Source: Zygnema cylindricum (taxonomy: Eukaryota > Streptophyta > Zygnematophyceae > Zygnematales > Zygnemataceae). From it: a stretch of DNA of 64,000 nt. The stretch is from assembly GCA_037447655.1 (NCBI GenBank), contig JBBHKE010001881.1:1-64000 (forward strand), in the 5' to 3' direction. Numbering within the stretch: the first letter of the stretch is position 1; every line of letters starts with the position of its first letter. The translations under genes were made by a program, and so were the position numbers. This document shows, piece after piece, positions 26,931 through 59,886 of this stretch. The notes under the pieces are model-generated. The model ran no database searches, had not been told where the DNA came from, and worked only from the letters and a program-made list of their open reading frames with translations.

Positions 26931-26937
26931 TAAACTA

Positions 26938-27761: not shown

Positions 27762-28155
27762 TTTATTTTAGATTTTTTACAGTAGGCTGCGGTACATTTC
27801 CGTTTTATTAAAGACAACTGCGTTACATTTTTCATACATTTATCGACATTTTCGTATATTTCGGTTCATTTTAGAGTTTTTTTCCTACGGGGATTTTAGG
27901 GTTTTTAGGGTTCATTCTTGCACGTCCCTGTATAATTCAAGACATCTGTCTTGGATTTTTCGTACTGTTATCGTATGTCTTCCGCACCTTTTTTAATATT
28001 TTTGAAGGATTTTCTAGGGTCACGCTTTTCGTACATTTTTGTCCATCCCATACAGTAAAAATTACGAAATTTGTGAAAAATACGAAACAAGCGAATGCTA
28101 CATAGTTTTCGGGAAAATGTCGAAATCCGTACGAATTGGACAATTACGCCTTTTA

Positions 28156-36192: not shown

Positions 36193-37860
36193 CTGTAAAA
36201 TTTCCTCCCCGCCTTCTCCTTGGAGTATCTCAGACTCGTCCATATCACTTACTGACCCTAACTGCTTTTCCAACGCAGTAGTTTTCTCTAAAACCTCTGT
36301 CGCAAAAATCGAAGACTCCGGTGATAATGAAGTTTCTCCTGCCACTTCATTCAAAAAATCAACCATTGGACGGTTTTCCTCTACACTACGATAAGAAAAA
36401 ATGGGAGAGTCGAATCTTAAACCGGCTTTGGGAGGTTTTAGGACCGCACTTTCGAAAGTTGGTAAAGAAACCAACTCTCTCGCAGAATCTGATTCGCTTT
36501 TGAAAAGAACTTCAATAGGAACTTCACTGACTTCCTGTTCTATGTAACTATCGGCCGTTGTTTCTTCGACAGCAAAAACTATTTCTGGTGTTACTGGAGT
36601 TTCTGGTTCCTTTTCGGTTTCTGTTACTTTTCCGTTATCAGGAACAGCGAGTCCCGCGGCTTTTAAAAGCAAATCCCAAGGACGAGTTGGTCCGGGAAAA
36701 AGGGGCGTAGCAAATAAAGCTGGATAATATGAAAAAGAAGATTTTGATTCCTCAATTTCGGGAGTTTGAGGCAAACTCGCTGTTGCATTCCAGTCAGCTT
36801 CAATTTTTTCTAAGGCAGAAGCGTCTTTCAAATTCGCGGAAAATCCTGGGGTGGCCAATTGAGTTGAATAATATGACAACTTAGGATTGTTCACCCCTAT
36901 TTCTGGTGTTTGAGAGGCAGGAGATTTCTTCTCCTCTTCTGTACTTCCTGTTTCTGACAAATTTAAATCCACAGAAAAATCTGGTGTGGCGAATTGAGAC
37001 GAATAATATGATAATTTAGGATTGTTTACCCCTATTTCTGGAGTTTGAAGGACAGGAGATGTATTCTCATCTTTTGTACTTTCTGCTTTGGGTGTCGAAA
37101 ATTGAGAAGACACTGGTTCCGACAAATCTTTCGTCCCTACAGAAAAACCGGGAGTAGGAAACTGAGACGAATAATAAGATAAAGAAGAGCCTGATTCTGG
37201 AAATTTTGAGTCATCAACCTCCTTCTCCTCTTTTTTCTCCGGTGATTCTGGCGCTGGAAATGTTGGGATACCGACTGATGATTTGACTTCCTCCTCCCTT
37301 CCTTCCGGATACACAATTCTGACTGTGAGATCAGGAAAAGAGGTAGTGGTGGGTGCGACTGCATTTTCTTTTAACTCCTCAGTCAATGCCCCCTCTGAAT
37401 TCAAAGTGGGAGAAACACCTCCCCCCGGTGGAGGTTTTTTAAGAGGATCTTTTGTCTCTTTCCGTACCTTATCCATATCTCTCTTCAACAATCCCAGAAG
37501 ACCGATAAGAATAAAAGAGATACCGAGAAGGAGAACTTGAAGCCCTCCTTTACTCCAAGGCCCACTCTTAGGTGGCCCCATAGGGGGAGGAGAAGAACTT
37601 CCCATACTAGAGACTAACTGAATATTGGTATTTGGTGTTATCGCGTTTCGTGCGATAATTCTCCCCTCTAAACCTTTTGGAGTGTCGCCCTTCCACACGT
37701 TTTTTGGAATCTTTAAATACTTTCCGGCAACAATTGTATTCACGTCTGTAATTTCGTTTGTTTTTATCCACTCTCCAACATTGCTGTTGAATTTTTCCGC
37801 AATTTCGCTCAAAGTGTCTTTTGATTTCACTTCCAAAACCATATCCGAGGATTCGAGAGA
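36193..37860 (-). CDS. LysM-domain membrane protein, exon 2 (main exon)
   Basis: This 556-codon exon is open throughout. Its start is set by a strong acceptor (polypyrimidine then TGTCTGTCAG at 37861-37870) and its end by a donor after ATTTTACAG (GT at 36191-36192). Both are phase 0, as is the exon 1 donor. Residues 9-52 form one LysM module (KSKDTLSEIAEKFN ... NTIVAGKYLKIP). A Pro-rich stretch and one hydrophobic helix follow (about 106-125, LQVLLLGISFILIGLLGLL). Then comes a long acidic Ser/Thr/Pro-rich tail holding about four copies of SYYSxQFATPxF. LysM modules bind N-acetylglucosamine glycans such as peptidoglycan or chitin. The tail is not recognised. An unspliced frame would add 13 upstream residues that are probably intron. 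Confidence 0.82.
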
Positions 37861-39363
37861 CTGACAGACAGGAAAAAAGTCAAGAGAGGAAGAAATCAAT
37901 AGAAGAAAAAGTCAACGGAGGAAAAGACCACAGACGAAAAAGCCAAAAACACATTTTTTCCTGCATTTTTCAAGAGAATTTGAGAAACTCGAAAAAACAA
38001 AAACACAAAAAAATCGACAGCGAAAAATACCAAAAAAATCAACAGAGTCAGAAGTCAAGAATACATTTCAGTCCGGCAGTTGTTCAGGAGTTTTATCGAA
38101 AATCTGAAAGCCAACATCAGAATCACAAACGTGATTCACAATCAAAAGTTTCTTCCATTTTTTCAGTTTCCCTTTATCATTAACAAAAGTAGGAATTCTT
38201 GAATAAAATAGACAACCAAACAAAACAACATACACATCTGTGATAAACTGAACTGTGAAAGACGAAGTTTAAAAAAAAAACAAGCAATTGGAGACATGAT
38301 ACAAACATTTCAATAACACAGAAGAAAAACCCAAAAAAGTGACCTCAGGAATATGCAGTCTCATTGAAGAAGGAAATTCATGGATCAAAAAAGACCATTT
38401 CCAAAAACAGCTTTTAGAAACGGCAAAAAAAAAAACCTTTAATTATTTGCCACCAATAAGGCACACAAGGTTTTTTTGACAATACCGAAGCTTCAACCCC
38501 TTTCTCAGCCTGTCTTGTTGACAGAAAAAAAGTTAAGCCAGATGAGGTAATTCTGCAATGAAATGCACAGATTACTACAACAACACCTAAAACTCACACT
38601 TATGGAAGAAAAAGATTTGAAATGAAGAACAAGATAGTGTAAATCCAACATTCCGACAGTTAGTAAAGAAGTCAAATTTCTATATACGCATGTGAACTCC
38701 TGCCTAGAATGAACTTGAAACCGGACAAAAAATTTAACAACAGTGAAACAGAGAAACAGAGAAAACTTGCAATAACAGGCATTCGGACAAGAGCTTTCAG
38801 TTTACCACTGATAATCATCCATCCTTTTTGTGGTTTTATTTTATTGGAAACTTATAAGGAAATCATTGCAATAAATCAAGATTTCGGGAACATGGTGACA
38901 ACAAAGCGTCCAAAAGTGTACATATACAACTCAAATGCTCAAACAATTAGACTTGTGTTGACTTCAATTTTGTCAATTACTTAGATTTCTTTATTATGTC
39001 CACACCTCTCAGTGATTAAACTAGTGAAAGTTTCTTTTTACTGCTTATTTGGACTCAAACATACAACTAAACGCTTGTATGGCTACATTTTGATTCAGTT
39101 TAACGACCTTGGGAGAAGAAGCGAAAGAGAGGGAGGAGGAGGAGAGGGCTAAATATAGACCACATTGATCAATTATATCCTATTCAAAGCTTTCAATGTT
39201 GTCAAGCACAAGTAGATTTCAAAACTGACATTTCCTTGCTTCAAAAAACAGGAGATATACAAAGATAAGGAGAGAGAGAGAGAGGAAGAGAGAGAGAAAG
39301 AGAGTGAGAGAGATTCTCTGACAAAAGCTTCAAGGGCATTAATTGGAAAAATAAAGAGCTTAC
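37861..39363 (-). other. intron 1 of the LysM gene
   Basis: Donor GCG|GTAAGC at 39363 and acceptor TGTCAG| at 37861, both phase 0. 1503 bp, A/T-rich, no other gene seen. Inferred from splice signals and matching phase. Confidence 0.65.
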
Positions 39364-44666: not shown

Positions 44667-44717
44667 TGGGTATCTTACGGCATTTATAAGATTTGAACCA
44701 GCATCATAGGTTAACTA

Positions 44718-44893
44718 CACCGTGAATCGTTATTAGTGCTAATGTTTTTTTTGCCACATAAAACATTTTTTCTCTGTACACGCTTATCGGATTTCAAATC
44801 TGAGGGTTGCGATTGAAAGTTAACATTCTCAGCTTCCGATTGGCGGTGTCAAATTGAGAATCTAACAATTGTGTATGGAGAAAAGATGTCGGT
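44718..44893. mobile_element. MITE, CACCG family, right end lost (D6)
   Basis: Left end CACCGTGAATCGTTATTAGTG after TA. It matches D4 through GTGTATGGAGAAAAGATG and then breaks off. Confidence 0.7.
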
Positions 44894-45095
44894 GTTGGTT
44901 CAGTACAATACTGTACATTGTCGAAGATTTTACCCTCGTTGATTCGTAAACGTATTTGGGCCAATTCGATACGGTTTGTTCAAAAACTGTACGATTCACC
45001 CTGAAATTAAAACAAATTTCTTGATGTGATTACCCTGTCAGCCAAATTTCTTAGAAAATTGAACCATGGGTGAACGCAATAATCAATGGTGGCTA

Positions 45096-45312
45096 CACCG
45101 TGACTCGCTATTAGTGTTAATACTTTTTTTGCCACTTAAAACATTTTTTTCCGTACACACTTGTCTGGTTTTCAGTTTGAGACCGCTAATCGGAAGTTGG
45201 GAATCTTAAATTTCAATCGCAACCGTCACCTCCACATTCTGACATCTGTCTACGGAGAAAATATGTTTTAAGTGGAGAAAAAAAACATTAACACTAGTAG
45301 CGATTCACGGTG
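45096..45312. mobile_element. MITE, CACCG family (D7)
   Basis: TA-flanked (45094-45095, 45313-45314), with ends CACCGTGACTCGCTATTAGTG and CACTAGTAGCGATTCACGGTG. Confidence 0.82.
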
Positions 45313-45413
45313 TACAATAAAGTTACAGTAGGCGTTTTTTCAAACCCTGACGACCACATTTTTATTCCGTACTTGAAAATGAACATTCTTTTGTGTATTT
45401 TACTATAGTATTC

Positions 45414-46682: not shown

Positions 46683-47018
46683 TGAAACTCTGAGACCTCC
46701 ATAAGTCCTCAGAGTGGACAGCTTCCAACAAGCCTCTAGGATAATCCTGACCCCTTTGTGTTTAAGCAAAAATAACTGCCAACCTGGCAGACAAAAACTC
46801 TGACCAACTTCACCCCTATGAAGACAAGACTCCCCTGAGTCGATAGCAAAAAGAATCTCTGAATTTGCTCCCCTGAGCAGTAAGTTATGGAGGGTCAAAG
46901 TTGACCTTTTGAACAGAAGCTCTCTGGGAGAGGGGGTCCTATCTTCTAATTTTTCTAAGTCCTATCTCTCTCACAGACTCTATCTATTGATGTACGGAAC
47001 CAATCAGAATTGAGTTCC

Positions 47019-47055
47019 GTACGTAAAAGTACAGGTGCCGGTGTACTTTATGTAC
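47019..47055 (-). promoter_or_regulatory. GTAC palindrome in A2 LTR
   Basis: GTACGTAAAAGTAC and GTACTTTATGTAC face each other around GGTGCCGGT, with further GTAC words on either side (46992, 47063). Same place and layout as in family B LTRs. Confidence 0.45.
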
Positions 47056-47446
47056 GGACATTGTACGACATGGCCAAAATGTCGACACATGTCAAATCCG
47101 GATTCGGTGCCATAATCTCCGGAGATTCCACAATCCAACGGAATTTCGCCACGCGTCATCCGATGTGGCGATGGCCACAAACCGCCGAAATCTTCCTCCG
47201 CGATCTCGGCGCTAATCCCGGCTGTCCGATTAAATTCGGCTTTAATCGTAGCCGTAATAAATACATGTGCGGTATTTATTTCTTTTACGAAACAAATGCG
47301 CGGTACTGATTTTTGTCCGTACCGTAAGTCGTACATTATATATTACTGGATCTATGTATCCCGTAATTCATTTCAGTTAAATGGTTTATCGCTTGTATAC
47401 ATATGTAAATAATTATCAAACTATATGCTAGGTAACACTACCGCTA

Positions 47447-47523
47447 GATTAAACGGCTAAGGCTACCGGCTATTTCGTGTCTGCCGGCCGGCAGGTACAA
47501 GGATCAAATCCTGCCGCCGGCAC
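47447..47523 (+). other. tRNA-like segment antisense in A2 left LTR
   Basis: AACGGCTAAGGC then CAAGGATCAAATCCTG and GCCGGCAC. Same order as in the other LTRs. Confidence 0.5.
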
Positions 47524-47731
47524 ATACATTTTAATCAAATAAATAAACCCTAATATAAAATTCCCGTAAACCTCAGGATAGCCAAGGTAGCCATGGCTCT
47601 AGCTTCCTCTCCAATTTCTCAGTGACTGCGACAAGTTTGAGAGTTGGAGAGAGAAGTTAGAGATAGACTGCCTCGACTTCTATATTTCTTTTCACACCTA
47701 GAAAATACTAATTAAACCATTAGTTTCTACA

Positions 47732-47744
47732 CTCCCCTTTTTTT
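47732..47744 (-). promoter_or_regulatory. polypurine tract of A2
   Basis: Element strand AAAAAAAGGGGAG immediately before the 3' LTR. Confidence 0.85.
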
Positions 47745-48188
47745 CTAGTCAATCTTTAATTTCAGACCACACTTCTCCCTGCAAAAAATTAGCTTAGGGG
47801 AACGCACAGGTTTGGTCATCATATCTGCTACCATCTCACTATCTGGTCTATACTCTAAACTGATTATTTTGTTTTCTACTTTCTCTCTAACAAAGCTGAG
47901 TCTGATGTCCATGTGTTTGGCTTTAAAATGGTGTTTAGGATTGGCAGAAATAGCGATTGCTGCCTGATTATCACAAAATATTTTCTGCACACCACTCTTA
48001 AGGTGACGAAGCTCACCAAGCAAAGACTTGACCCACATCAATTCTTTTACAACAGAGCAAGAGGCCATATACTCAGCCTCCATGGTGGATTGAGCAATAA
48101 CTTTTTGTTGTTTGCTACTCCAACAGCAAGCCCCATCACCCACATATAATACATATCTAGAAGTGCATCTCCTCATAGGAGCATCACC
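47745..48188 (-). pseudogene. copia A2 RNase H
   Basis: It encodes SRYVLYVGDGACC, STMEAEYMA (catalytic Glu region), VKELMWVKSLLG, IFCDNQAAI (catalytic Asp) and KHMDIRLSF, the usual copia RNase H tail. A TAG at about 48187 breaks the first catalytic Asp motif (SDAS then stop, where Trp is usual). Confidence 0.92.
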
Positions 48189-48584
48189 CTAACTGGCATC
48201 ACTCCAAGTAGTGATGTCAGTATTCTCCCCACCCAAATGCAACCATAGATCCCTAGTTCCTATCAAATATCTAAGGACTCTCTTAGCTGCCTCCCTATCC
48301 CTCTTAGTGGGAGCATTTAGACATCTACTCAGCACTCCTACAGCTGCAGCTAAATCCGGCCGGGTACAATTCATAAAATAGATTAGACTTCCCACTACTT
48401 GCCTGTAAGGAATAGTCTGCATGAACTTTTGTTCTTCAGGAGATAATTTCTCATCTAAGACTATGACTCCTTCTTCCTCACTCCCCTCACTTCCCTTCTT
48501 CAACTCCATTGGAGTTGTACAACTATTAGCTTTATCCATTTGAATTTTTTCAAGCATGTTCCCTATTGCTTCCTTTTGAGTCAA
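48189..48584 (-). pseudogene. copia A2 RT C-terminal part and start of RNase H
   Basis: It encodes IPYRQVVGSLIYFMNCTRPDLAA and GVLSRCLNAPTKRDREAAKRV-type motifs (connection region of copia RT), then the first RNase H strand TTWSDAS. A continuous frame, 131 codons. Confidence 0.92.
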
Positions 48585-48889
48585 TCTTATAATTTTTCTT
48601 TTTCGGTCTCTCTATACTTGAATTCTCAAAATATATTTTGCTTCCCCCATATCCTTCATTTCAAATCTCCCCTTAAGATCGGTTTTTAGTTTATTTATTT
48701 TTTCCATTGATTTACTTAAAACAAGCAAATCATCAACATAAATTGCAATAAATATAAAACCTTCCTCATCTTCGAAAACATAGATTGAGTGATCTGAGCT
48801 GATCTGGATATATCCCAGACTAGTAAGAAACTCATCAAGCTTCTTATTCCACTATCGAGGCGCCTGTTTCAAACTATAAAGAGATTTAA
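48585..48889 (-). pseudogene. copia A2 RT catalytic middle (no long open frame)
   Basis: The YVDD box is encoded at about 48729-48740. TAG at 48852-48854 after KQAPR is at the same place as in A1 (137-139). A further stop lies near 48612. Confidence 0.8.
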
Positions 48890-49699
48890 TCAACCGGCAT
48901 ACCTTACTCTCCTCTCCTTCCTCCACAAACCTTTCGGGTTGTCGCATGAAGATCTCCTCTTCCAATTCTCCATGAAAAAGGTTGTTTTGATGTCCATCTG
49001 GTGCACTTCCATGTCTTCCGCTGCTGCTAGGCTGAGAAGTATGCGGACGGAGGGAAATCTGACCACCGGGGCAAAGGTTTCCTCGTAGTCAATTCCCTCC
49101 TTTTGTGTAAATCCCTTTGCCACTAGTCGGGCCTTGTAGCGCTCGATTGTGTAATCTGGGTTCAATTTTAATTTGAAAACCCACTTACAACCGATTGGTT
49201 TTCGGTTAGGTGGACAATCCACCTGCTCCCAAGCATCGGCTGCCATAATTGAGGCCATCTCCTCATTGATGGCTATCTTCCACCGATTTTTTTCTGGACA
49301 AGTCATCGCCTCTCCATAAGTTTGAGGTTCATCTTGATGAGATAGTTTAGTTACCTTGTTATTAATCTGTTTTTCTTGCAGTCTTTTGCTACTTCTCCTT
49401 CCCCCCTTCAAATCAGAGGCCGAAATAGATGGTTCTCGTGGATTCTTTCCAACAAACTCGGCTTCTCCCCTATCCTTTGATTCTGAATCAATTTCCACCA
49501 CGTCTTCCGCTTCGGGTAGAGTTGTCACTGGAGTTTCCACAGCCAAGTCCTTTTCAGTCTGATTTGTACCTGCAAGAATGTCATCTTCTCTAAAACCTGG
49601 ATAGTTAGGAAGCCCAATGTCATCGGAATTTTCTGACTCAAATCTGATTTTTAATGACTTTGCATATTTGAAGGGATCCACAGACTTTCTTTCATCCAT
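48890..49699 (-). pseudogene. copia A2 RT N-terminal part
   Basis: 269 codons. Acidic linker, QTYGEAMTCPEKNRWK, GCKWVFKLK, RYKARLVAKGFTQKEG and QMDIKTTF. A one-base loss after this (compared with A1) shifts the frame before HGELEEEIFM. Confidence 0.92.
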
Positions 49700-49756
49700 A
49701 ACTACTAGATGTTTTACAAAGATTATATCTTCCGTTTTTAGATCATAAACTCTATA

Positions 49757-50330
49757 TCATTTAACATCCTCATCATATCCTAATAAGTATCCCGATTTTC
49801 GTTTAGGATCTAGCTTACAATTAGAATGATCTGTATCTAGACTAAATACTTGACTGTCAAAAACCTTTAAGTGAGATATGTCTGGTTTCCGGCTTGTCCA
49901 TCTCTCATAAGGTGTTTGATCTTTTATAGCTGAAGTAAGAACTCTATTTTTGAGGTAATTAGCATAGTTCATTGCTTCTGCCCAAAACCTTTTTCCTATC
50001 TTCTTATCTGACAACATACTTCTAGCACTATCACTTAGTGTTCTATTTAACCTTTCAGCTACCCCATTCTGTTCCGGGTTTTTGTGGAACTGTCTTTTGG
50101 TGTTGGACCCCATCTTCCCTCAGAAAATCCTCAAACTGGTTAGAAGTATACTCTCCACCATTGTCACTCCTTATTCTCTTGATTGGAGTTTCATGGAGTT
50201 TTTGGCTCCATGCTTTATATTGTCTAAAACAATCCTGAGCGTCGGACTTGTTTTTCAAAAAATACACTCGGGAATACCGAGACCAATCATCAGTGATAGT
50301 CATCATAAATCTCTTCCCCCCCCGGTGAGG
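49757..50330 (-). pseudogene. copia A2 integrase core
   Basis: TITDDWSRYSRVYFL and RSDNGGEYTSNQFEDFL (catalytic Asp) are in one frame (50055-50330). QNGVAERLNRTLSDSARSML (catalytic Glu) and the tail are in another (49757-50113). The catalytic triad is present, unlike in A1. Confidence 0.9.
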
Positions 50331-50415
50331 GTACTCTAGCCGGTCCCCAAATATCTGTGTGTACTTGATCTAGAATTTATTCTCCTTTATAGGTGGCTGT
50401 TTTAGAAAAGGGTAA

Positions 50416-50973
50416 TCAGAGTGTTTTACCTTGAGCACACCCACTCTTATCACTTATATTATCACTCTCACTAAACTTAATCCCTTCCACCACTCCCATC
50501 TTTTTCATCTCTCTTAACTTGTCTAGATTCACATGCCCAAGCCTCTTATGCCACATCATAATATCATGAACACCAACATAATAAAGTTTTTTCGTTTCAT
50601 TACTTAAGATCAGCCTAAACATCCCATGGTTACCTTTCTCAGCAATGAAATAGACATCCTCCTCAAAACTAGCAGTAAAGACTCCTTCCCTAGTGCTAGT
50701 AAAAAAACCCTTATCATCTAATACAAATGTTGAGATGAGGTTTTTGTTCAGCTCCAAAATAAACAATACATCGGAGAATGTTACTATGGATGTCTTTCCT
50801 CTTACTAACACTTTCAAATCTACCAATCCTACAAGAGTAGTGGTGACTATCCTCCCATCCCCGTACTCTATCTCTACGGTGGGAATATTTCTTATCATAG
50901 TGAACAGGTGCCTATCCTTACACATGTGCATGGAGGCACCTGAATCTACAATCCAACCTGCTTCACCTTTCAA
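50416..50973 (-). pseudogene. copia A2 protease and integrase zinc finger
   Basis: The protease active site is intact (GWIVDSGASMHMCKD). The HHCC finger (MMWHKRLGHVNLDKLR) follows, but the last cysteines are disturbed (SDKSGCAQG where A1 has SVCSGCAQG). Confidence 0.92.
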
Positions 50974-51305
50974 TCCACCGTAAACACATTTCTGCCTTTG
51001 TGGAATTTCGACCTGTTTTTCGCCTCCAACTCCTCATCTAAAAGGAGCTCATCGTCCTCGTCCTCGGATTCCGCCTCATGTACCTGTGTCACAAGGGCCT
51101 TTTTCTTTCCTCTCGGGGTACCACCGGTCTGCCCCTCCTTTAACCGAAGCTCGATTAGCTTAGTGCACTCTGCCATATAGTGCCCAGGTTTCTTACAAAA
51201 ATGACATAAACCTTTGGGAGCCCTTGGTCGAACTCGTCGGTCTGATTTTTCTGCTCCCTCCCCCCATAGTTTCCGACCGGTTTGCGGGAATCCTTGTTCC
51301 TCCAA
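50974..51305 (-). pseudogene. copia A2 gag C-terminus with CCHC knuckle
   Basis: RAPKGLCHFCKKPGHYMAEC zinc knuckle, then an acidic stretch. A base loss before PRRQ-type text (compared with A1) shifts the frame. Confidence 0.9.
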
Positions 51306-52081
51306 TCGGTCGCAATTGCCTAGGCTTGGCCACTCTTTCCTCCCCTTCGGATCTCAATAGTATTCTCCCGAACGAGAATCATCCCTACCACTGAGTTCCA
51401 TATCCACCTTGAGTCCGGCAAGTCCTGCACATGGTTGACTATGTTCTCGAACTCATCGGGTAACTTCATCAGTAAACAGTAAACCTTTTTTTTTCACTAA
51501 AATCTTTTCCAGCACTCTCTAGCTCGATGAAGAGTGTAGCTAGCTCATTGCAAAAATCCAACATGTTCCCCCCTTTGTATACATACTCCTTAACTTTATG
51601 ATCAGCCAACTGTTGTTGCTGAATCGTACTACTTCGGTACATCTCTATGAGAGCCATCCAAAGATTGGATGCCCTTTCTGCCTGCAAACGAGGACATGCA
51701 AGTCCTTGAGTGAGATGGCGTAGGATGAAGTGCTTTGCCGCCATATTGTTGAAGTCTCAGGTTTCAATATCATTCTCCTCGTTCCTCGAAATAGGTGAGA
51801 TGAATGCCGAACCAATTGCTGTTGGTGTGGTCGCCTCCTTCTCCTTTCCTTTGTCCACCACCTCTCCTTCCTTTGTTTCCTCTGTTGAAGGTGGATCCTC
51901 TTTCCTAGTGAATCTGCTTCCTCCAAACCCTGGAGGAATTCTAAGACATGATGGACGCCCCAACCGTCCACTCATTATCCCCCAAAACCTTTTTTGGCAT
52001 AGAGCTCCTATCATCATACTTTCCCAGTATATGAAGCCAGTTCCATTAAAGATTGGTACCCCAGAGGGTGGGCCCATAACG
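51306..52081 (-). pseudogene. copia A2 gag N- and middle part
   Basis: 51757-52101 encodes the N-terminus (VPIFNGTGFIYWESMM) and ends at a TGA where A1 has Trp. 51469-51744 encodes MAAKHFILRHL and KVKEYVYKGG. The frame then shifts in a poly-T (poly-A on the element strand) near 51485. Confidence 0.88.
52067..52081 (-). promoter_or_regulatory. primer binding site of A2, half-tRNA(iMet) type
   Basis: 14 of 15 bases match the A1 site (GGTGGGCCCATAAC then G on the plus strand). It contains the same in-frame ATG. Confidence 0.78.
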
Positions 52082-52830
52082 TGAAACTCTGAGACCTCCA
52101 TAAGTCCTCAAAGTGGACAGCTTCCAAGAAGCCTCTATGATAACCCTGGCCCCTTTGTGTTTCAGCCAAAAACAACTGCCACCTTGGCAGACAATAACTC
52201 TGACCAATTTGACCACTGTAAAAGCAAGACTCCCATGAGTCGAGAGCAAAAAGAATCTCTTAATTTGCTCCCGTGAGTAGTAAATTATGGAGGGTCAAAG
52301 TTGACCTTTTGTACAGAAGCTCTTTGGGACAGAGGGTCTTATCTCCTAATTCTTCTAAGTCTTATCTCTCTCACAGACTCTATCTACTGATGTATGGAAC
52401 CAATGTGATTACAATTTCGTACACAAAAGTACAGCTGCCGGTGTACTTTATGTACGGACACTAAACGACATGGCCTAAATGTCGACACGTGGTATGTCCG
52501 GATTCATATCAAACCATATAGTACGTAACACTAGTTAAAGACTTAACGGTTAAGGCTACCGGCTACTTGCTATCTGCCGTCCGGTAGGTACCAGGATCAA
52601 ATCCTGTGGCCGGCACATACCTTTTAGTAATTTAACCCCTAACTAATATATATTCCCCGTAAACCTCTGGATAGCCTAGGTAGCCATGGCTCTAGCTCCC
52701 TCTCCAATTTCTCAGTGACTGCGACAAGTTTGAGAGTTGGAGAGAGAAGTTAGAGGTAGACTGCCTCGGCTTCTTTCTATATTTCTATTTAGACCTCGAA
52801 AATACTTTAAATGGACCATTAATTTCTACA
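52082..52830 (-). repeat. 5' LTR of copia A2 with internal deletion
   Basis: Ends as in the left LTR, but only 749 bp. About 300 bp are missing at about 52505 (from GTCCGGATTC straight to ATATCAAACCATATAGT). The GTAC region (52418-52460) and the tRNA-like segment (52541-52616) remain. Confidence 0.9.
52541..52616 (+). other. tRNA-like segment antisense in A2 right LTR
   Basis: AACGGTTAAGGC, then GGTACCAGGATCAAATCCTG (pairing CAGGA/TCCTG arms) and GGCCGGCAC. The best-preserved copy of family A. Confidence 0.55.
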
Positions 52831-52848
52831 CATCTTACCCAAACATAC

Positions 52849-53170
52849 GGTCTCAAAATTACATTTGAACAGGCAGCTCAATACGTTGTAGAATACGAGA
52901 TGACGAATTGTTGGTGGGAGGCCCACTATCGACCAAAAGCCCCTCAGAGAGAACCTAACCCTTTCAATTCACCAAATCCTCGTAACTTGGGGCCAAATAA
53001 TCGGCCACCAAGGGTCCCAGCTATGGGAACCCCACCAAATCAACCATCCAATCGGATTTGTTTCTGATGTGGCAAGATCGGGCATGATGCTCGGATGTGC
53101 CCGGATAAATCTGCGACCTGTACACCTGCAAACAGACTTGCCACTTTGTGTATCGTTGTCACATGAAAAA
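52849..53170 (+). pseudogene. gypsy gag C-terminus with zinc knuckle
   Basis: It encodes FEQAAQYVVEYEMTNCWW, an Asn/Pro-rich linker and a CCHC knuckle with a TGA at its third position (CF-stop-CGKIGHDARMC). Arg (CGA) is common there, so this fits a C-to-T change. The frame is lost before the pol part. Confidence 0.8.
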
Positions 53171-53276
53171 CCCTTAATTTTCAAATCAAAATCAGATTCG
53201 AAATGGTGGCATACCTGTTAGATCTGCCAAAATAGTCCAACTAGATAAAGAGTCAGAATAAAACTCTCCACCTAAA

Positions 53277-55127
53277 GTGTCTTGGAGAGAAAAAGAGAGA
53301 GAGGAAATGCAAACTCAAATGGCCGCTATGATCAAAGACCAGTTTGCAGCCCTTATGGCTCAAATGAAATCGCCTACTCACGTAACTGGTATGGCTCGTA
53401 CAGGTGTCCACCTTCCCACGCTAGTAGGTCGAGTTTTACGAGATTCAACCATTCAAAAGCGGGCAACCACGTTTGACAAGAGGACAGTTGATCACAATCG
53501 CGAGGGTAAACAGTCTAGCACATGTCTACCATTATCATTTTCCAAAGAAAGCGCAACCAATTTGCCCGAAACAGCTTCCACCATCACGGCGGAAGCACTC
53601 ACTATTTTTGACCTCTCCATTGAAGACTGCCATAAGGTTAAGGAAAGATTATGCATTTTGTCTACTATGATTTCCGATTCACCCAACCTTAAATCTACGG
53701 TGACATCCATTCCATTTGCAACATTACAGGCTTTACAAATGAACCGTTATCTTGATGCTCTTAGGCCTATCTCTACGGACGAGCGCAGTTCACTTGACCC
53801 ACATATCAGTTTTTTAGATAATGGGATGGGTGCATTTTCAGTCAATGGTGTCATACCGTCATTACCACTTATGGACACCGGTGCAAAACCAGTTATTTTT
53901 GGATCATCTTTTGCACTGAAACTAGGTCTGACAGTTGATAAACTTCATTCCACTTCCACACGTTTACTCACCTCAGTGGGAACAACCGAACCAGTTTTGG
54001 GCATTACGAAGGATTCCCTCTGTTTTAGGTTTCAAAATGGTATAGAATCTGATTTTGCGGAAGTTCGTGTACACGCATTGGTCACCAAATGTAGTGATTA
54101 CGAGTTTTTAGTAGGGCAAGATGTGATTTTCAGAGTAGGAGGCGGCGTTGATATGTACGATCAGACTTTTTCCTACCGTCCTACCAATTATCCGGAAAAG
54201 AAAATTTGTCTCCCTCTAATTTCAGCACGCCAATCCATGCCCATTATGGCTCACGTAGCCCAATCTGTCCCTGCTTATTCCGGTAATTCGGTGGGATTTG
54301 AAAATTTTCATTCTCTTTCCGCAGAGGAAATTATGCCCGACAGTCCTTCTTTGCCTGAACTTTTCGATAATCCAGGTTTTATTATCGATTCTCACGAGTT
54401 CGATCACATCTACAAACACACACTTCAGATTCCTTTATCGCGGGTTCCACCCCTGCCTCTTATTTCTATAGATCTTTCCGGATTTTTTCCCATTAATTGG
54501 AAACCAATTCAGGTAAAACCTCATCAAGATGGTCTAGTCATTTTAGACCTATTCGCAGGCATATGTACCTCTCTACTCTCATGCCTTCGCAACGAATTAC
54601 CTATCAAGCACTACTACTCAGTTGACACTGACCCTTTAGCTCGGAAAGCCCAAACACATCACTGTAATCTTTTACACGGACAATATCCACATCTTTTCCC
54701 TAAATCGGCATTTGCTCACATGCATACAACACTACCTCAAGATATTTGTTTGATAGGAAACCAACACCTTCTTGATGTGGAACCAATTGATCTTCTCTTT
54801 GCTGGTTGGGAGTGTCAGGGAATGTCACGAGCAAGCAAAAGTTTCGGCTTAGCTGATCCCCGCACCAAATTAATCTTTGAATTACTTCGTATCATGCATT
54901 TTTTGCAATCTTTTGATCGCCGATTGGGATATATTCTGGAAAACGTGGCAGCCTTTAACGATCCTCGACCTACAGTGTTAGCTGATTACAAGCGCATAGA
55001 AGAATTAATTGGTCCTCCTCTTATCATTGATGCCGCTCGTCACGGGTCGTTAGCTCATCGGGTTCGATCTAAATGGACCAACTTGATTATTATTGGACGC
55101 CATAAAAAAGGAAATCTTTCTGTCTAA
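53277..55127 (+). pseudogene. gypsy pol: protease plus N-terminal two-thirds of a DNMT3-like methyltransferase
   Basis: 616 codons; the opening codon is GTG after a stop, so the true start is upstream or at Met-11. Residues 1-30 are a charged helix. About 186-285 is a retropepsin-like protease with active site LMDTGA (199-203) and FLVGQDVI (277-284). About 418-616 is a cytosine-5 methyltransferase: motif I DLFAGICTSLL (424-434, AdoMet binding), acidic VDTDP (449-453), motif IV DLLFAGWECQ with the catalytic Cys at 513, motif VI ENVAAF (555-560), and motif VIII-like HRVRSKWTNL (594-603). The spacing and AHRVR..W.NL resemble DNMT3/DRM more than DNMT1. In motif IV the usual Pro before Cys is Glu. 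A TAA (55125-55127) ends the frame in mid-domain. Confidence 0.9.
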
Positions 55128-55763
55128 CCTCCTTTTACAGATATTCAGACTTCACTTCTTCCTTTTCACAAAGTCCAAACCTGTTTGCAGCTTGATCACC
55201 CACCGAATTACAACATTAACGTCTCAAGCCAACCACTCAAAGTTCTCCCCACTCTAGTTTCTTATCTAGACTCTCACGCTTTCTCTGGTGATGGGCCCGG
55301 CCTGCTCAAAAATGGCCTAGATGAACCTACAGCCACAGAACGGGAACACCTTATGCATTTCCTTCCCAACACTACGGCTGCCCATGGTCTCACAGAAAGA
55401 CAGCGCTGCATCCTTTTAGGTCGTGTCATGGACCCTCAATCCCTCTCATTTGTCTTAGGCCTCGGATTTGCACCAGGTCGTTACGCACAAACCCATCCGT
55501 CTCAACCAGTTGGGGGGGGGAATGCATCATCAATTACTAAACACATACCTACACGATCTCCGGTCACCCTTAGGGGGACACCTTCTCAATTTTCCCTCTT
55601 TCCATCCCTTATAAAACCTTCTCCAAATGTCACAATCTACGATTTCTTGAACCCTAGCCACATGTCATGGTCTATTCCGGCATATACTGTTGCCCAATCT
55701 GCTCCCTCTAGTCCTATGTCAACACCTCCTCACTTGACTGCACCCTTTCCTACTCCCAGCTAG
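55128..55763 (+). pseudogene. gypsy pol: C-terminal part of the methyltransferase and linker
   Basis: It is in the same frame as the upstream part, across the single TAA. It encodes VLPTLVSYLDSHAF, then DEPTATEREHLMHF (motif IX region) and LTERQRCILLGRVMD (motif X region), which complete the methyltransferase fold. A Pro/Ser-rich linker follows. TAG at 55761-55763 ends it, but the same frame continues into the RT region. Total methyltransferase length is about 270-290 residues, normal for an isolated DNMT3-type catalytic domain; no PWWP, ADD or UBA domain is seen. Confidence 0.88.
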
Positions 55764-56290
55764 CACCATTGGACAAACTGCTTACAAGAAACACCGGTTG
55801 GTTACTCATTAGGTCAGTCACTTATCGCGGATGAACAACTAGCTTTTGCACAAGCCATGGAAGCAATGACGATTAAAGGTTTGGAATCTCCTAAATGGAA
55901 ATTTGGCTCTAATCTCTCTCAATCTGAACATGATCTACTGAACGAAGTGATTCTCCGGAATATCGACGGTTTTGCTTTCTCTATGAATGATCTTGGTCGC
56001 CATACCACCTATAAAATGTCTATAGATTTGGAAGATGATCGTCCCATTTTTAAGCCGAAACACCGCTTATCTGAAACGGAATGGGAATTAGTGGACCAAC
56101 GCTGTGCTGAATTAGAGGAAGCTGGCCTCATTTATCAGTCAAATTCTACTTTTGCCACACCCACTGTCATGCCCAAAAAAAAGATGCCGAAGGAAACTTT
56201 ACTGATCGCAGGATGTGCGGCGATTACCGTGAACTCAATGCTAAACGATACAAGATCGACATCGAATGCCATTGGCCGAATAACTATTTG
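55764..56290 (+). pseudogene. gypsy pol: RT N-terminal part
   Basis: In frame with the methyltransferase up to an A-run (56174-56182). It encodes FKPKHRLSETEWELVDQRC, ELEEAGLIYQSNSTFATP and VMPKK, the usual start of gypsy RT. After the A-run the frame shifts by one; the next frame reads MCGDYRELNAKRYKI. Another shift comes near 56285. Confidence 0.9.
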
Positions 56291-57276
56291 ATCATGTAGG
56301 AGGCGCTAAATATTTCAGTATTCTGGATTTACGACAAGGATTTAACCAGATTGAAATAGAGGAGAAGGATAGGCATAAAATTGCCTTTTGGGGTAGTGAT
56401 GGTCGTTGGGAGTGGTCTGTCATGCCTTTTGGACTTAAAAATGCCCCCGCAGTTTTTCAAAAAGTAATGAATTTAGTTTTAGATGGTTGCAAGTTTGCAC
56501 GATGTTATATCGATGATTTGATTATCGCCTCCTCCACAATCGAAGATCACGCAGCTCATATTGAATGGGTTCTAACTGAACTGAAAAAGGTCGGATTAAA
56601 ATGTCATCCAACTAAATGTACTTTCGGGTCCGTGGGTGTGCCTTACCTTGGACATTTCATTTCCTCTGAGGGAATCACACCACTTGAAGCAAAAACCGAG
56701 GCTATCAGCAAACTGCCAACCCCTGTTGATCTCACGAGTCTTCGAGCCTTCCTAGGATTAGCTAATTATTATCGCAGATTTGTCCCTAGTTTCAGCATTA
56801 TCGCTTCACCATTGAACGATTTGCTCAAGAAAGAAGTTCCTTTCGTTTGGGGACCTGATCAGATTTTGGCTTTTCAGAAGTTGAAAGATGCCCTCTCTAG
56901 TGCTCCAATCCTCCGAACTCCTAATCACAAATTACCTATATGCCTACAAACAGATTTCGGAAAGCCTGGCATTTTCTGCCATCTTAATAAGTTGAAAGAT
57001 GCCCTCTTTAGTGCTCCAATCCTCCAACCTCCTAATCACAAATTACCTATCTGCCTACAAACAGACTTCGGAAAGCCTGGCATTGCGGCCATCTTAACTC
57101 AGTGTGAACTAACAGGAGAAGAATACGTGGTCGCTTACGCAAGCAAGAGTAATAATCATGCGGAGTCAAATTACACTAGTTATGAAGGAGAATGTCTAGC
57201 TGCAGTTTGGGGTATTTTACACTTTCGTCACTACCTTTACGGAAAACCGTTTACCCTGGCTGATGACGAACAATAA
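56287..57276 (+). pseudogene. gypsy pol: RT catalytic core, connection and RNase H
   Basis: It encodes FSILDLRQGFNQIEI (first catalytic Asp), MPFGLKNAPAVFQ, the catalytic box CYIDDLIIAS, and YLGHFISSEGI. The RNase H start follows: LQTDFGKPGI with its Asp and YEGECLAAVWGI with its Glu. A 111-bp in-frame repeat (from 56881 and from 56992) doubles 37 residues including the LQTDFGKPGI segment. The frame ends at TAA before the rest of RNase H. Confidence 0.92.
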
Positions 57277-57520
57277 ATTGTCAGGAAAATTAGCGCGATA
57301 GGCATTAATTTTACAAGAACATGATGTGGAAATAATTCACTGTCCAGGATTACTTAGATTAAATGTAGACAGCATTTCCCGAAATCCTTTGCCAAGGACC
57401 ACAGAGTATGGAGTTCGGCACGATTTTGATGACGACTTAGCTACTATGTCACCAGGGTTTTATATCACACATTCGTTAGCCTCGCTGCCCCACCCTCGTT
57501 CTGTCCGCTCCAGCCGAAGT
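57277..57520 (+). pseudogene. gypsy pol: RNase H end
   Basis: It encodes LILQEHDVEIIHCPGLLRLNV and SISRNPLPR, the counterpart of the usual PGKxNxxADxLSR end of RNase H. A stop near 57300 and a frame change separate it from the preceding part. Confidence 0.82.
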
Positions 57521-58190
57521 CCTCACAGATCAATGGACTGAATTTCGTGGAGAATTCCAAGAAATGCTAGATGACGCTCTCATAGACCATCATTGAACAA
57601 GCCGAGATCATCCACAGGCTGATGGATTGGCGGAACGTGCAGTTCAGACCTTCAAGCGGGCATTACGCAAGCATTGCTTGGAGAAACATATAACTGTGTG
57701 GGACGAGTCACTTGGCTATATTGCCATGGGGTAGCGAATGTCGGTACAGGCAAGTCTTGCTAATTTCAGTCCGTACTATGTCTCATTTGGGCGTCAACCC
57801 TTGCTGGGTAGGAATATCCAGAAAGCCGCAAGCTTTCCTCTCCCCTTACTGTCTGACAGGGTTTTTTTGGAAGAACTCACCAACCGCGCGCTGCTTTTCG
57901 CCCGAGAGATGCTTATGGCTTTTAACAACCTGCAGATCGCGCAGCACATAGATACTTTGCGCTTCGCCACAACACTCAGCGGCAGCTACTGGCCCCAGGA
58001 GAAGCCTTATCGAGTGGGATATTATTACTACTTACGGCGCCAATCCTTCGATACCTTAGACACAGATGTTGCACCTCATATTATCCAAATTATCCAAATA
58101 GACACGAATGGCATGCTATGACTTCAAGGAGCAGATACGCAAACCTTTCGGGAGCATTCGAATAACTGTGCTCCATGTTATTTACCAAAT
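57521..58190 (+). pseudogene. gypsy pol: integrase, N-terminally deleted
   Basis: It starts inside the core at LTDQWTEFRGEFQ (second catalytic Asp region) and continues with HPQADGLAERAVQTFKRAL (catalytic Glu). It ends with a C-terminal domain of RVGYYYYLRRQS and NNCAPCYLPNL. The HHCC finger and first catalytic Asp are absent, so a deletion joins RNase H to mid-core near 57510. Several stops are present. Confidence 0.87.
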
Positions 58191-58202
58191 CTCTCCCAGG
58201 AC

Positions 58203-58418
58203 ATGGACCCTATGCGTATGCCTATCACTAAGGCTACAGAATGCACACTTTGGAACCGAGCCGACGGAGAAACGTCAATGCTTCTATGCGACCATTGCAA
58301 CCAGGGATTTCACATGGAGTGTTTGGTTCCGCCGTTAACAGCGGTTCCGAAAGGTCATTGGTTTTGTCACGATTGCCAGATTTTACCAGTTGTATTGGCC
58401 AGCTCTTCGGCAAGCTAA
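58203..58418 (+). pseudogene. gypsy pol: PHD finger at the C-terminus
   Basis: A 71-codon frame encodes SMLLCDHCNQGFHMECL and GHWFCHDC, the core of a PHD zinc finger (Cys4-His-Cys3). The expected second zinc ligand is Trp (ECTLW instead of Cys-x-x-Cys), one base from a Cys codon, so the fold may be damaged. PHD fingers bind histone H3 tails. Its place directly after the integrase suggests target-site choice, as chromodomains do in chromoviruses. A stop follows, then the PPT, so it is the end of the polyprotein. Confidence 0.87.
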
Positions 58419-58424: not shown

Positions 58425-58439
58425 CGGGGGGGGAATAAA
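58425..58439 (+). promoter_or_regulatory. polypurine tract of the gypsy element
   Basis: GGGGGGGGAATAAA runs into the LTR start TGAGCC at 58441. Confidence 0.75.
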
Positions 58440-58440
58440 C

Positions 58441-59463
58441 TGAGCCTCCTAGCTTCCTCTCTCACCCTACCTTAATTCTTCTTATGATATGTTTATTTCC
58501 TGCTTGCTGCTTGTCCATAATTAATCTCACTTGTTTCTGAGATTTTAATGACTTTCTCACTTATTTTGTTATCATTTATCTTTCAGCTGGTTGTGTTGCA
58601 TGTTTATCATAATCTTTGTCACATGCACGACAGCTGTCATGCCGCATCACGGCGGCGCATCAAATTATATTTATTTACATGGTAATGGTCCTTAATATAA
58701 AGGACACCACACTAATTTACTCATGGGGATATTTCGGTGGCGACAGGACCGTACAGATTTTATTCCGATGCCATGAAACCCGCGGACGTTTCAGATTATG
58801 TCCGCGAAGTCGTCAGTCGCCGTAATTTATGCGAACCAATGTGGTTTGCTGTCCGAGAATTTGGCGAACTGACATACTTCGTCGGCAGGATTTCCGCGAC
58901 CAAGTTTGAATCGATGTACGGACGGACGCGAACCAAAACATCAACTCCAAATAATGTTGACGCCAGCGTGGATTCGAATGTTAATCTACGGCCACGAGGG
59001 ATGTAGACAAATGGACGATCCGGATGCGAACTGCACCCGTCGACGGTGATAGGTCCATTTTAAGTCGTGGACCCTTGGAGGTCGCACGCATTTACATGTA
59101 GCATAGGAAGGGTTTTTATCTGTAGGCTGTAGATTTTGTAACGTAAGGTAGACAATTCTGGTCACCTATTGGCTAGAATCCAAACTAGGCGCAGACAACT
59201 ACATAGAACGCATGTATTTGCAATAAGTTAGGCGCTCAGCTGTAGACTCCATACTTAGCAAATTTTAGGAGAATTCTGTGCTCACAATTTCAAGAGCACA
59301 GGAATTCTCATTTTGGAAGATTTGACCTAAACTTTGAGTATTTTTCTTGTGAAATTGTCATGATAGTTTTAGTGGCTATTTTTCTGGTCATTAAGCGTTT
59401 TACTGCCTAGCTCTTACTTTCTTTCTCTGTAAACCTGCCCTACAAATTAATCTACGCGGCTCA
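58441..59463 (+). repeat. 3' LTR of the gypsy element (right end inferred)
   Basis: It begins TGAGCCTCC after the PPT. The first matching end is CGCGGCTCA at 59463, giving a 6-bp inverted repeat TGAGCC/GGCTCA and a length of about 1.02 kb. No 5' LTR is in the window to confirm it. It contains an 89-codon frame (58737-59006). Confidence 0.6.
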
Positions 59464-59886
59464 CGCTGAGGCCTAACCGGTTTCCCTTCACTTCTTCTCG
59501 CGTCCTATCAAGTGGATTTCTGCTCGGCCTTCTTTCTCAGGGTGTTGCTGAACCTTGGATTGTGATTGGACCGTTTTGGGTTTGCTTGTGTGGTTTACTG
59601 CGTGATAGTGGATTAGGGTTGGCTTTCCTCGCATGTTTTGGGTGTGACTAAATCTGGTTATCTCAGATTTGCTCGCAGTTTGCTTCATTTTCAGTTTGTG
59701 TGTTGTGATATTGAGTTGAATCTGTATTTTTTGAACTCCTGTAAGGAATATAAACTGACCACGAAGCCTAGTGGCTATCCGTTGGCTTTTCTGAGATTTT
59801 AATGACTTTCTCACTTATTTCGTTATCATTTATCTTTAAGCTGGTTGTGTTGCATGTTTATCATAATCTTTGTCACATGCACGACA
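58537..59886. repeat. 97-bp direct repeat, one copy in the LTR and one beyond it
   Basis: 58537-58630 and 59789-59886 both read TCTGAGATTTTAATGACTTT to TTGTCACATGCACGACA with two or three differences, 1252 bp apart. The outer copy is probably a scrap of another LTR of the same family. Confidence 0.85.
58737..59006 (+). CDS. small unrecognised ORF inside the gypsy LTR
   Basis: 89 codons, including MWFAVREFGELTYFVGRI and SATKFESMYGRTRTK. It is not recognised. It lies wholly inside the inferred LTR, so it may be a leader or early gag-like frame or chance. There is no sign of splicing. Confidence 0.25.
   Translation: MATGPYRFYSDAMKPADVSDYVREVVSRRNLCEPMWFAVREFGELTYFVGRISATKFESMYGRTRTKTSTPNNVDASVDSNVNLRPRGM

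What the first reader, a model, noticed from the sequence alone, without database searches (positions are those of the whole stretch)
53277..55763. Cytosine-5 DNA methyltransferase fused in frame inside a Ty3/gypsy pol polyprotein
Seen: one frame runs from a retropepsin (LMDTGA) through methyltransferase motifs I (DLFAGI), IV (ECQ), VI (ENV), VIII, IX and X into the RT N-terminus, broken only by TAA 55125 and TAG 55761. Known: capture of DNMTs by retrotransposons has been reported, as I recall, for dinoflagellates and a charophyte alga. Inference: the enzyme was made as part of pol and may have methylated the element's own DNA, for silence or for shielding from host defence. The position between protease and RT and the DNMT3-like character deserve comparison with those cases.
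Basis: partly seen in the sequence, partly recalled or inferred. Interest (0 to 1): 0.92.

Follow-up and report, generated by a model that had tools for sequence, protein, structure and literature searches.

The report
DNA methyltransferase inside a plant-lineage retrotransposon
A jumping element in a plant-lineage genome carries, in the middle of its own replication protein, an enzyme of the kind cells use to silence jumping elements; the copy in this window is broken, but it belongs to a large family with recent insertions and an unusual way of being joined into the chromosome.

Summary
Window 53262-56291 is one frame with protease, a C5-methyltransferase domain (Pfam PF00145, E 7e-6) and the RT start, broken at TAA 55125 and TAG 55761. 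The window copy is a fossil: its 5' end is gone, part of the integrase is deleted, and it carries private motif damage. It is one of a large family: 61 of 62 PF00145 matches examined in the same genome (of 123 scored) are copies of two related families, and one uninterrupted 2395-codon frame runs Gag knuckle-protease-methyltransferase-RT-RNase H-integrase-PHD finger. The domain is DNMT3-type (profile E 7e-19 against DNMT3A) and mostly under purifying selection. This is the KnitGypsy-Dnmt3 kind (de Mendoza 2018), in a streptophyte I could not name. What the parts I read of that paper do not describe: a C-terminal PHD finger; a primer site complementary to the element's own repeat; and A-coding-B-A-B repeats with TG...CA ends, 4-bp target duplications (5 of 6) and a palindrome GACAGCTGTC at B|A. 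I infer that a DDE integrase opens a circular cDNA at this palindrome. Self-methylation of the cDNA remains untested.

The parts
52833..53300 (+). Remnant of Gag (matches residues 376-530 of the L009 frame); CCHC zinc knuckle at 53059-53100 with a stop inside it
   Evidence: tblastn with L009 Gag, 60-65% identity, E 4e-50; knuckle read by eye; the 5' side is cut off at 52832 by a copia LTR
53811..54230 (+). Retropepsin-like protease (LMDTGA 53868-53885)
   Evidence: Asp_protease_2 E 0.0025, below cut-off; matched in 13 of 13 family-1 loci
54432..55124 (+). DNMT3-type C5 methyltransferase, motifs I to VIII
   Evidence: PF00145 E 6e-7 on the piece 54513-55124; PDB best match DNMT3A E 3e-6 on 54450-55124; alignment A1
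55128..55763 (+). Methyltransferase target-recognition part and motifs IX/X (about 55386-55459, by eye), then linker; follows TAA 55125
   Evidence: tblastn 45-80% identity in 13 of 13 family-1 loci
55764..57276 (+). Reverse transcriptase and RNase H; broken by a frameshift near 56284 and a tandem duplication of about 110 bp at 56878-57097
   Evidence: RVT_1 E 3e-26, RT_RNaseH_2 E 3e-36; duplication
57519..57734 (+). Remnant of the integrase core (second half, by eye); about 600 bp are missing between RNase H and PHD compared with L009
   Evidence: Read directly; spacing of tblastn hits
58122..58418 (+). PHD finger at the C-terminal end of pol (finger 58248-58376); second zinc Cys replaced by Trp in this copy
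   Evidence: PF00628 E 2.4e-10; the nearest relative L027 has Cys
58426..58433 (+). Polypurine tract (run of G)
   Evidence: Run of 7 or more G at the same place in the 10 further loci
58434..58632 (+). Repeat B1
   Evidence: 99 bp of it (58534-58632) recurs as B2 at 98%; 200-bp B in L027
58629..58638 (.). Palindrome GACAGCTGTC at the B1|A2 border
   Evidence: Same site 180-237 bp after the polypurine tract in 9 of 20 further loci, of both families
58635..59787 (+). Repeat A2
   Evidence: By alignment with other copies; no A1 in the rest of the window
59788..59886 (+). Repeat B2 (start trimmed); 3' end of the element, ...GACA
   Evidence: 98% to B1; junction compared with L027
46683..52832 (-). 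Ty1/copia element that abuts the truncated 5' side (context, not part of the element)
   Evidence: LTR pairs; RVT_2 E 3e-29, Pol_BBD E 3e-20

Best explanation
The window holds a dead copy of a Ty3/gypsy retrotransposon family that long ago captured a DNMT3-type cytosine-5 methyltransferase and has kept it in pol between protease and RT, with a PHD finger behind the integrase. Inferred life cycle: (1) RNA starts inside repeat A, and a stretch at its start pairs with the site just behind A1, so the RNA primes its own reverse transcription. (2) RT makes a linear cDNA whose long terminal repeat is B-gc-A, from the polypurine tract to the primer site. (3) Its ends are joined into a two-repeat circle; this makes the A|B junction. 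(4) The DDE integrase cuts the circle at the palindrome GACA^GC^TGTC inside one repeat and inserts it with 4-bp target duplications, giving A-coding-B-A-B. (5) The methyltransferase, made with RT, acts on the new double-stranded cDNA or circle, to mark it as host-like or shield it; the PHD finger steers insertion by reading a histone tail. Shown by sequence: family, domains, selection, repeats, ends, target duplications, palindrome, complementarity. Inferred: steps 1 to 4 as a pathway. Conjecture: step 5.
For: Family: 61 of 62 examined PF00145 matches are retro copies in two families (the 59 best-scoring of the 123 scored and three more with long frames or stops read, so not a random sample). 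Order: protease-MTase-RT in 13 of 13 family-1 loci; one uninterrupted 2395-codon frame with all domains, L009 (its knuckle and protease are below Pfam's cut-offs, E 0.009 and 0.012); family 2 has MTase-RT-RNase H-integrase-PHD in one frame in L012 and L013. DNMT3 class: profile E 7e-19 DNMT3A, then 7e-8 bacterial HaeIII, 4e-7 HhaI, 1e-6 DRM2, 5e-6 DNMT2, 0.1 DNMT1; canonical, not DRM, motif order; the 50 Foldseek rows shown (of 99 with E <= 0.001) are all DNMT3 structures, though the model is poor (pLDDT 51). Selection: median dN/dS 0.107 (6 pairs, dS 0.2-0.5) and 0.088 (4 pairs, dS 0.5-1) in the MTase; catalytic Cys, ENV Glu and motif-VIII Arg invariant in 14 aligned sequences. Vertical descent: MTase and RT trees of 15 copies share 7 of 12 splits, several with weak RT support, and no well-supported conflict between subfamilies. 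Ends: TGTC...GACA with 4-bp target duplications in 5 of 6 A-coding-B-A-B copies. Palindrome in 9 of 20 loci and the window. The A2|B2 junction joins the end that borders the primer site to the end that borders the polypurine tract, and no two copies of one subfamily share it (11 rows). Self-complementarity of 15-22 nt in 9 of 10 copies, against at most 14 in shuffles, with different sequences in different subfamilies. Recent activity: A1 = A2 over 931 bp in L009.
Against: No circle, RNA or methylation was observed; steps 1 to 5 are read from sequence. The two A-coding-B copies (L017, L018) and one of six A-coding-B-A-B copies (L011) have no 4-bp duplication. The palindrome is absent from 11 of 20 loci as held, some because the layout or the held DNA lacks A2. 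L024 (family 2) shows no primer complementarity (9 of 10 nt), though its A1 border is uncertain; in L018 and L019 the paired site lies 9 and 15 nt behind the A1 border. PHD match in family 2 is below Pfam's cut-off (21.5 and 17.5 against 24 bits). Family 1 has Glu in place of the Pro of motif IV, which is near-universal (recalled). dN/dS of the methyltransferase is higher in other bins: 0.276 (17 pairs, dS 0.05-0.2), 0.307 (2 pairs below 0.05), 0.423 (1 pair, dS 1-2), 0.337 (6 pairs, dS 2-9), and single pairs reach 0.63-0.67; 174 of 210 pairs are saturated. CpG is only mildly low in family 1 (observed/expected 0.79-0.94) and lower in the copia element without a methyltransferase (0.48), so base composition gives no sign of self-methylation.
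Confidence: 0.6

Rival explanations
1. An ordinary LTR retrotransposon with a normal linear integration; the A-coding-B-A-B pattern comes from later rearrangement of normal A-B long terminal repeats (loss of B from the left repeat and a duplication of B on the right).
For: TG...CA ends and 4-bp duplications are ordinary gypsy features. L017 and L018 have another repeat layout.
Against: The same layout, with the same borders next to the polypurine tract and the primer site, is found in 6 copies of three subfamilies with both ends read, and the right half of it in 4 more loci and the window; none of the six has B behind A1. Chance rearrangement would not repeat this in two families about 40% identical in the methyltransferase.
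Confidence: 0.12
2. DIRS-like integration: the circle is inserted by a tyrosine recombinase supplied in trans by true DIRS elements.
For: The repeat layout is that of DIRS-type elements, as PMC5890265 says of KnitGypsy-Dnmt3; DIRS1-like elements are thought to use circles (PMC3266345 passages).
Against: The DIRS model makes no target duplication (PMC3266345 passages); here 5 of 6 copies have 4-bp duplications. The element encodes its own integrase (rve E 2e-11, H2C2 E 4e-15 in L009), and the Pfam scan of the three long frames lists no tyrosine recombinase.
Confidence: 0.06
3. The methyltransferase no longer methylates DNA: it is kept as an RNA- or DNA-binding, DNMT3L-like or RNA-methylating part of pol.
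For: Family 1 has Glu-Cys-Gln in motif IV in 24 of 25 copies examined. The K. nitens enzyme showed no activity in yeast, judged inconclusive by its authors (PMC5890265 section 10).
Against: Catalytic Cys, ENV Glu and motif-VIII Arg are invariant across both families in alignment A1, which a purely structural role would not need; family 2 keeps Pro-Cys-Gln in 35 of 36 copies examined (in L074 it was not read).
Confidence: 0.2
4. The methyltransferase serves silencing: the element methylates its own new copies, lowers its activity and so spares its host.
For: Raised for such elements in PMC5890265 (Discussion). Copies of KnitGypsy-Dnmt3 carry CHG and CHH methylation (section 9).
Against: Recent insertions with identical A repeats (L009) show that the family moves; host enzymes such as the chromomethylase could methylate copies anyway.
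Confidence: 0.2

Closest known systems
KnitGypsy-Dnmt3 of Klebsormidium nitens (de Mendoza et al. 2018, PMC5890265; sections 9-11 read, passages of others)
   Same: DNMT3-type methyltransferase without rearrangement in the pol of a Gypsy LTR element, intronless, under purifying selection (Ka/Ks < 0.2 there), DIRS-like layout of repeats with Gypsy domains.
   Different: PHD finger, 4-bp target duplications, palindrome, internal primer complementarity and Glu in motif IV are not mentioned in the parts I read ('PHD' and 'target site': 0 occurrences in the main text). Figure 4 and the supplement could not be seen, so the domain order there could not be compared. No K. nitens sequence was at hand, so relatedness is untested.
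SymbioDIRS-Dnmt3 (PMC5890265, passages)
   Same: DNMT3 in pol; A-coding-B-A-B repeats.
   Different: Tyrosine recombinase there, DDE integrase here.
DIRS1-like elements with an MT domain (PMC3266345, passages)
   Same: Retroelements with a methyltransferase in pol and a proposed circular intermediate.
   Different: MT behind RNase H, an adenine-type enzyme according to PMC5890265; tyrosine recombinase; no target duplication in the model.
Tf1/sushi self-priming Ty3/gypsy elements (recalled)
   Same: Primer site complementary to the element's own RNA.
   Different: Longer complementarity here (15-22 nt) and a different repeat layout; lineage not tested by a tree.
Chromoviruses (PMC2864245, PMC3605345: search listing and start of abstract only)
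   Same: Chromatin-reader domain at the C-terminal end of pol.
   Different: PHD finger instead of a chromodomain.

Membership tests
Ty3/gypsy LTR retrotransposons | Order protease-RT-RNase H-integrase(DDE) | tested here: met
   L009 in full; L012 and L013 from methyltransferase on; window lacks part of the integrase
Ty3/gypsy LTR retrotransposons | TG...CA ends and short target duplications | tested here: met
   TGTC...GACA, 4-bp duplication in 5 of 6 A-coding-B-A-B copies; 0 of 2 A-coding-B copies
Ty3/gypsy LTR retrotransposons | Same LTR directly at both ends | tested here: not met
   A-coding-B-A-B in 6 copies with both ends read
DNMT3 class of C5 methyltransferases | Best match to DNMT3 among solved C5 methyltransferases | tested here: met
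   Profile 7e-19 DNMT3A; next HaeIII 7e-8, DRM2 1e-6, DNMT2 5e-6
DNMT3 class of C5 methyltransferases | Motif order I-IV-VI-VIII-IX-X, not rearranged | tested here: met
   Alignment A1; motifs IX/X by eye
DNMT3 class of C5 methyltransferases | Tree placement among DNMT3, DRM, CMT, MET1 | not tested
KnitGypsy-Dnmt3-like elements | DNMT3 in gypsy pol with DIRS-like repeats and purifying selection | tested here: met
KnitGypsy-Dnmt3-like elements | Common descent with the K. nitens element | not testable with these tools
   No K. nitens sequence available
DIRS order | Tyrosine recombinase, no target duplication | tested here: not met
   DDE integrase and no tyrosine recombinase in the frames scanned, 4-bp duplications in 5 of 6
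Self-priming elements | Primer site complementary to the element's own RNA start | tested here: inconclusive
   Complementarity to mid-A in 9 of 10 copies; RNA start not known

The most novel reading that the evidence does not exclude
A DDE integrase that uses as its substrate not the ends of linear cDNA but a palindromic site inside the terminal repeat of a circular cDNA: the old circle-junction model, abandoned for retroviruses (recalled), realised in a DNMT3-carrying gypsy lineage. Circular double-stranded cDNA would then be the common feature of these elements and of DIRS elements, both of which have captured DNA methyltransferases, and protection or marking of that circle would be what the methyltransferase is for. 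(Ngaro and Viper, in the DIRS order without the MT domain according to PMC3266345, and the SymbioLINE elements of PMC5890265 are counter-examples to a strict rule.)
Probability: 0.35. Interest if true: 0.82.

Novelty: new variant of a known kind. Interest (0 to 1): 0.62.

Why it matters
It adds a large, recently active set of DNMT3-carrying gypsy elements in a streptophyte genome to the one such charophyte case I found in print. It supplies an internal comparison (two families, one with Glu and one with Pro in the catalytic motif) and a concrete, testable idea of why such elements keep a methyltransferase. The repeat borders, target duplications and palindrome also make a long-discarded idea, integration from circles, testable in a natural element.

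Tried and rejected
Chance reading of motifs: rejected by the Pfam and PDB scores. DRM-like or DNMT1-like origin: rejected by motif order and scores. Bacterial-type Dcm: TIGR00675 matches at 4e-11 and 2e-14 but far below its cut-off of 100.65. Host gene overrun by a retrotransposon: rejected, since 13 of 13 family-1 loci have the same order. Simple insertion of the copia element into the gypsy copy: not supported, because the five bases next to the copia ends do not match and neither L009 Gag nor three A repeats find anything significant on its far side (window 1-46682; best Gag match E 7); how the 5' part was lost is open. Structure models: two runs, mean pLDDT 51 and 50; only the first was searched, as weak support. 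Viral-contig scan with the methyltransferase: nothing. Rfam and tRNA scans of the window: nothing. The PF00145 list does not hold the window's own copy, so it is incomplete. Host name: not found. Assembly size 352.8 Mb in 2689 contigs fits none of the sizes I read exactly (Zygnema cf. cylindricum 359.8 Mb in 3587 scaffolds, PMC11096116); an exon of a chromomethylase (L007; PDB 4fsx, 1.7e-28 against about 1e-12 for DNMT1; that 4fsx is maize ZMET2 is recalled) points to a streptophyte, since chromomethylases are plant-specific and first appear in charophytes (PMC6453930 passages). A first pair of trees with 18 rows shared only 5 of 15 splits and gave a false L027+L028 pair from frame-damaged RT rows; repeated without L019, L021, L027, L028.

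Papers: PMC5890265 sections 9, 10, 11 and passages; PMC6338049 section 0 part 1 of 4 and passages; PMC9033089, PMC12344493, PMC6453930, PMC10407611, PMC11096116, PMC3266345 passages; all others search listing and start of abstract only. Among the rows listed by searches (20, 20, 12, 20, 20, 20 and 15 rows) I saw no title or abstract start other than PMC5890265 that reports DNMT-carrying gypsy elements in streptophytes; PMC12344493 mentions the known cases (and calls the LTR ones Copia). In one search none of the 20 listed papers holds 'PHD finger'. These searches cover open-licence PMC papers only.
Full report
OBSERVATION. From 53262 to 56291 one frame is open except for TAA 55125-55127 and TAG 55761-55763. 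Pfam finds DNA_methylase above its cut-off in it (E 7.1e-6; 6.1e-7 for the domain alone), and the best solved relatives of the piece 54450-55124 are DNMT3A chains (E 3e-6). RT and RNase H follow. Two things are not in the finding: a PHD finger at 58122-58418 (E 2.4e-10), and a repeat structure at 58434-59886.

STATE OF THIS COPY. It is a fossil. A copia element on the minus strand ends at 52832 and the gypsy copy starts there, at about residue 376 of Gag as counted in L009; the rest of gag, the leader and repeat A1 are not in the window. The zinc knuckle holds a stop, the RT region has a frameshift and a tandem duplication of about 110 bp, about 600 bp between RNase H and the PHD finger are missing compared with L009, the residue after DLFAGI is Cys where 12 of 13 family-1 relatives have Gly (L022 is frame-shifted there), and one zinc Cys of the PHD finger is Trp. 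Against its nearest fetched relatives its methyltransferase evolves with little constraint (dN/dS 0.068/0.102 to L020 and 0.051/0.113 to L027).

FAMILY. The window lies in an unnamed 352.8-Mb assembly. A search for PF00145 gave 123 scored matches out of 782 candidates, a lower bound; the window's own copy is not among them. I read 62 of the 123, namely the 59 best-scoring and three further ones: 20 as 10-kb loci, picked in part for long open frames, 40 as short pieces, and L007 and L008. 61 of 62 are retrotransposon copies, 25 of family 1 (window-like) and 36 of family 2 (about 40% identical in the methyltransferase); one, L007, is an exon of a host chromomethylase. Some pairs (for example L078 and L079) may be two haplotypes of one insertion. 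In 13 of 13 family-1 loci the order is protease, methyltransferase, RT, RNase H; a PHD finger was found in 10 of these 13 and in 4 of 7 family-2 loci; RT was found in 5 of the 7 family-2 loci. L009 holds a single 2395-codon frame with zinc knuckle, protease (both below Pfam's cut-offs), methyltransferase, RT, RNase H, H2C2 and core integrase, and PHD finger; L012 and L013 hold methyltransferase to PHD in one frame each, the PHD below the cut-off. In L013 a weak protease match lies in the frame one stop codon upstream (E 2e-4, below cut-off).

THE ENZYME. A profile of 14 domains matches DNMT3A at 7e-19, then bacterial HaeIII at 7e-8 and HhaI at 4e-7, DRM2 at 1e-6, DNMT2 at 5e-6 and DNMT1 at 0.1. 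Motifs stand in canonical order, not the DRM order. The motif-IV Cys, the ENV Glu and the motif-VIII Arg are invariant in that alignment. Motif IV reads Glu-Cys-Gln in 24 of 25 family-1 copies and Pro-Cys-Gln in 35 of 36 family-2 copies; in L090 and L074 it was not read. Median dN/dS is 0.107 for 6 pairs with dS 0.2-0.5 and 0.088 for 4 pairs with dS 0.5-1; 19 younger pairs have medians of 0.28-0.31, 7 pairs above dS 1 have 0.21-0.42, and 174 of 210 pairs are saturated. The RT region gives 0.029 (2 pairs, dS 0.5-1) and 0.036 (4 pairs, dS 1-2), but 0.93 (8 pairs, dS 0.2-0.5), a bin that I think is disturbed by frame-damaged rows. Trees of methyltransferase and RT from 15 copies share 7 of 12 splits and disagree with good support only inside a group of near-identical copies. 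I infer that the enzyme has been inherited with the element since before the two families split. Structure models are poor (pLDDT 51 and 50); Foldseek on the first shows only DNMT3 structures among its 50 rows.

REPEATS AND ENDS. Six copies with both ends read have the layout A1-coding-polypurine tract-B1-gc-A2-B2. They start with TGTCATGCCG and end with ATGCACGACA. Five of the six are flanked by 4-bp target duplications (TTGG, AAGG, CCCT, CCCC, GTGG); L011, whose A repeats are only 80% alike, is not. L017 and L018 are A-coding-B without a duplication; I cannot explain them well. B1 starts at the polypurine tract. At B1|A2 stands GACAGCTGTC, a perfect palindrome, 180-237 bp behind the tract, in 9 of 20 fetched loci, of both families, and in the window; 11 of 20 do not show it in the DNA held. 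At A2|B2 the A end, which in A1 borders the primer site, is joined to the B end, which in B1 borders the polypurine tract. No two copies of one subfamily share this junction: it differs by extra tract bases or by trimming, L010 has a shortened A2, and in the window about 98 bases of B are gone (11 rows); older copies may also have mutated there. That is what joining the two ends of a linear cDNA into a circle would leave.

PRIMING. In 9 of 10 copies bases at or within 15 nt of the A1 border are complementary over 15-22 nt to a stretch at about half of A, against at most 14 nt in 20 shuffles each; the paired sequences differ between subfamilies while staying complementary. L024 fails. I read this as self-priming; the RNA start is unknown.

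MODEL. RT copies such an RNA into a linear cDNA with terminal repeats B-gc-A. End joining gives a circle with an A|B junction. Cutting behind CA on both strands of the palindrome in one repeat, a stagger of two bases, and strand transfer give exactly A-coding-B-gc-A-B with TG...CA ends and short target duplications. The layout alone would also suit a tyrosine recombinase, but the target duplications and the DDE integrase speak against that. The A repeats of L009 are identical over 931 bp, so the cycle ran recently.

WHAT THE ENZYME MAY DO. No methylation data were at hand. CpG observed/expected is 0.79-0.94 in 12 family-1 copies, 0.62-0.72 in 6 family-2 copies, 0.78 in the window copy and 0.48 in the nearby copia, which says nothing for self-methylation. 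Purifying selection and the invariant catalytic residues favour an enzyme at work. The likeliest substrate is the element's own cDNA or circle, as de Mendoza et al. proposed for DIRS elements (PMC5890265 Discussion).

COMPARISON. The kind is known: KnitGypsy-Dnmt3, a DNMT3 in the pol of a Gypsy element with DIRS-like repeats (PMC5890265 section 9). PMC6338049 states that transposon-encoded methylases are absent from land plants; whether this host is an alga or a land plant I could not settle, so no claim is made against that statement. New against what I read: the PHD finger, the target duplications, the palindrome, the primer complementarity, the Glu in motif IV, and the number and recent age of copies in this genome.

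Noticed in passing
window 11838-21398 and 23643-33201: A 9.56-kb direct duplication, 99.7% identical; it may be biological or an assembly effect.
   Followed up: no
window 1-4651 and 46683-52832, minus strand: Two related Ty1/copia copies (93% over 3.8 kb), with diverged relatives of their LTR elsewhere in the window.
   Followed up: partly
window 36019-37911, minus strand: A 630-aa open frame with a LysM domain (E 3e-6), probably a host gene.
   Followed up: partly
window 13431-13647, 15132-15354, 44715-45314: Self-complementary units of about 220 bp that recur in both orientations, MITE-like.
   Followed up: no
L007 1498-1797: Exon of a host chromomethylase; marks the host as a streptophyte.
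   Followed up: partly
L017, L018: Copies with A-coding-B only, correct ends but no target duplication.
   Followed up: partly
L053, L056, L078/L079: Family-2 methyltransferases only 65-73% identical to L013: family 2 is diverse.
   Followed up: no
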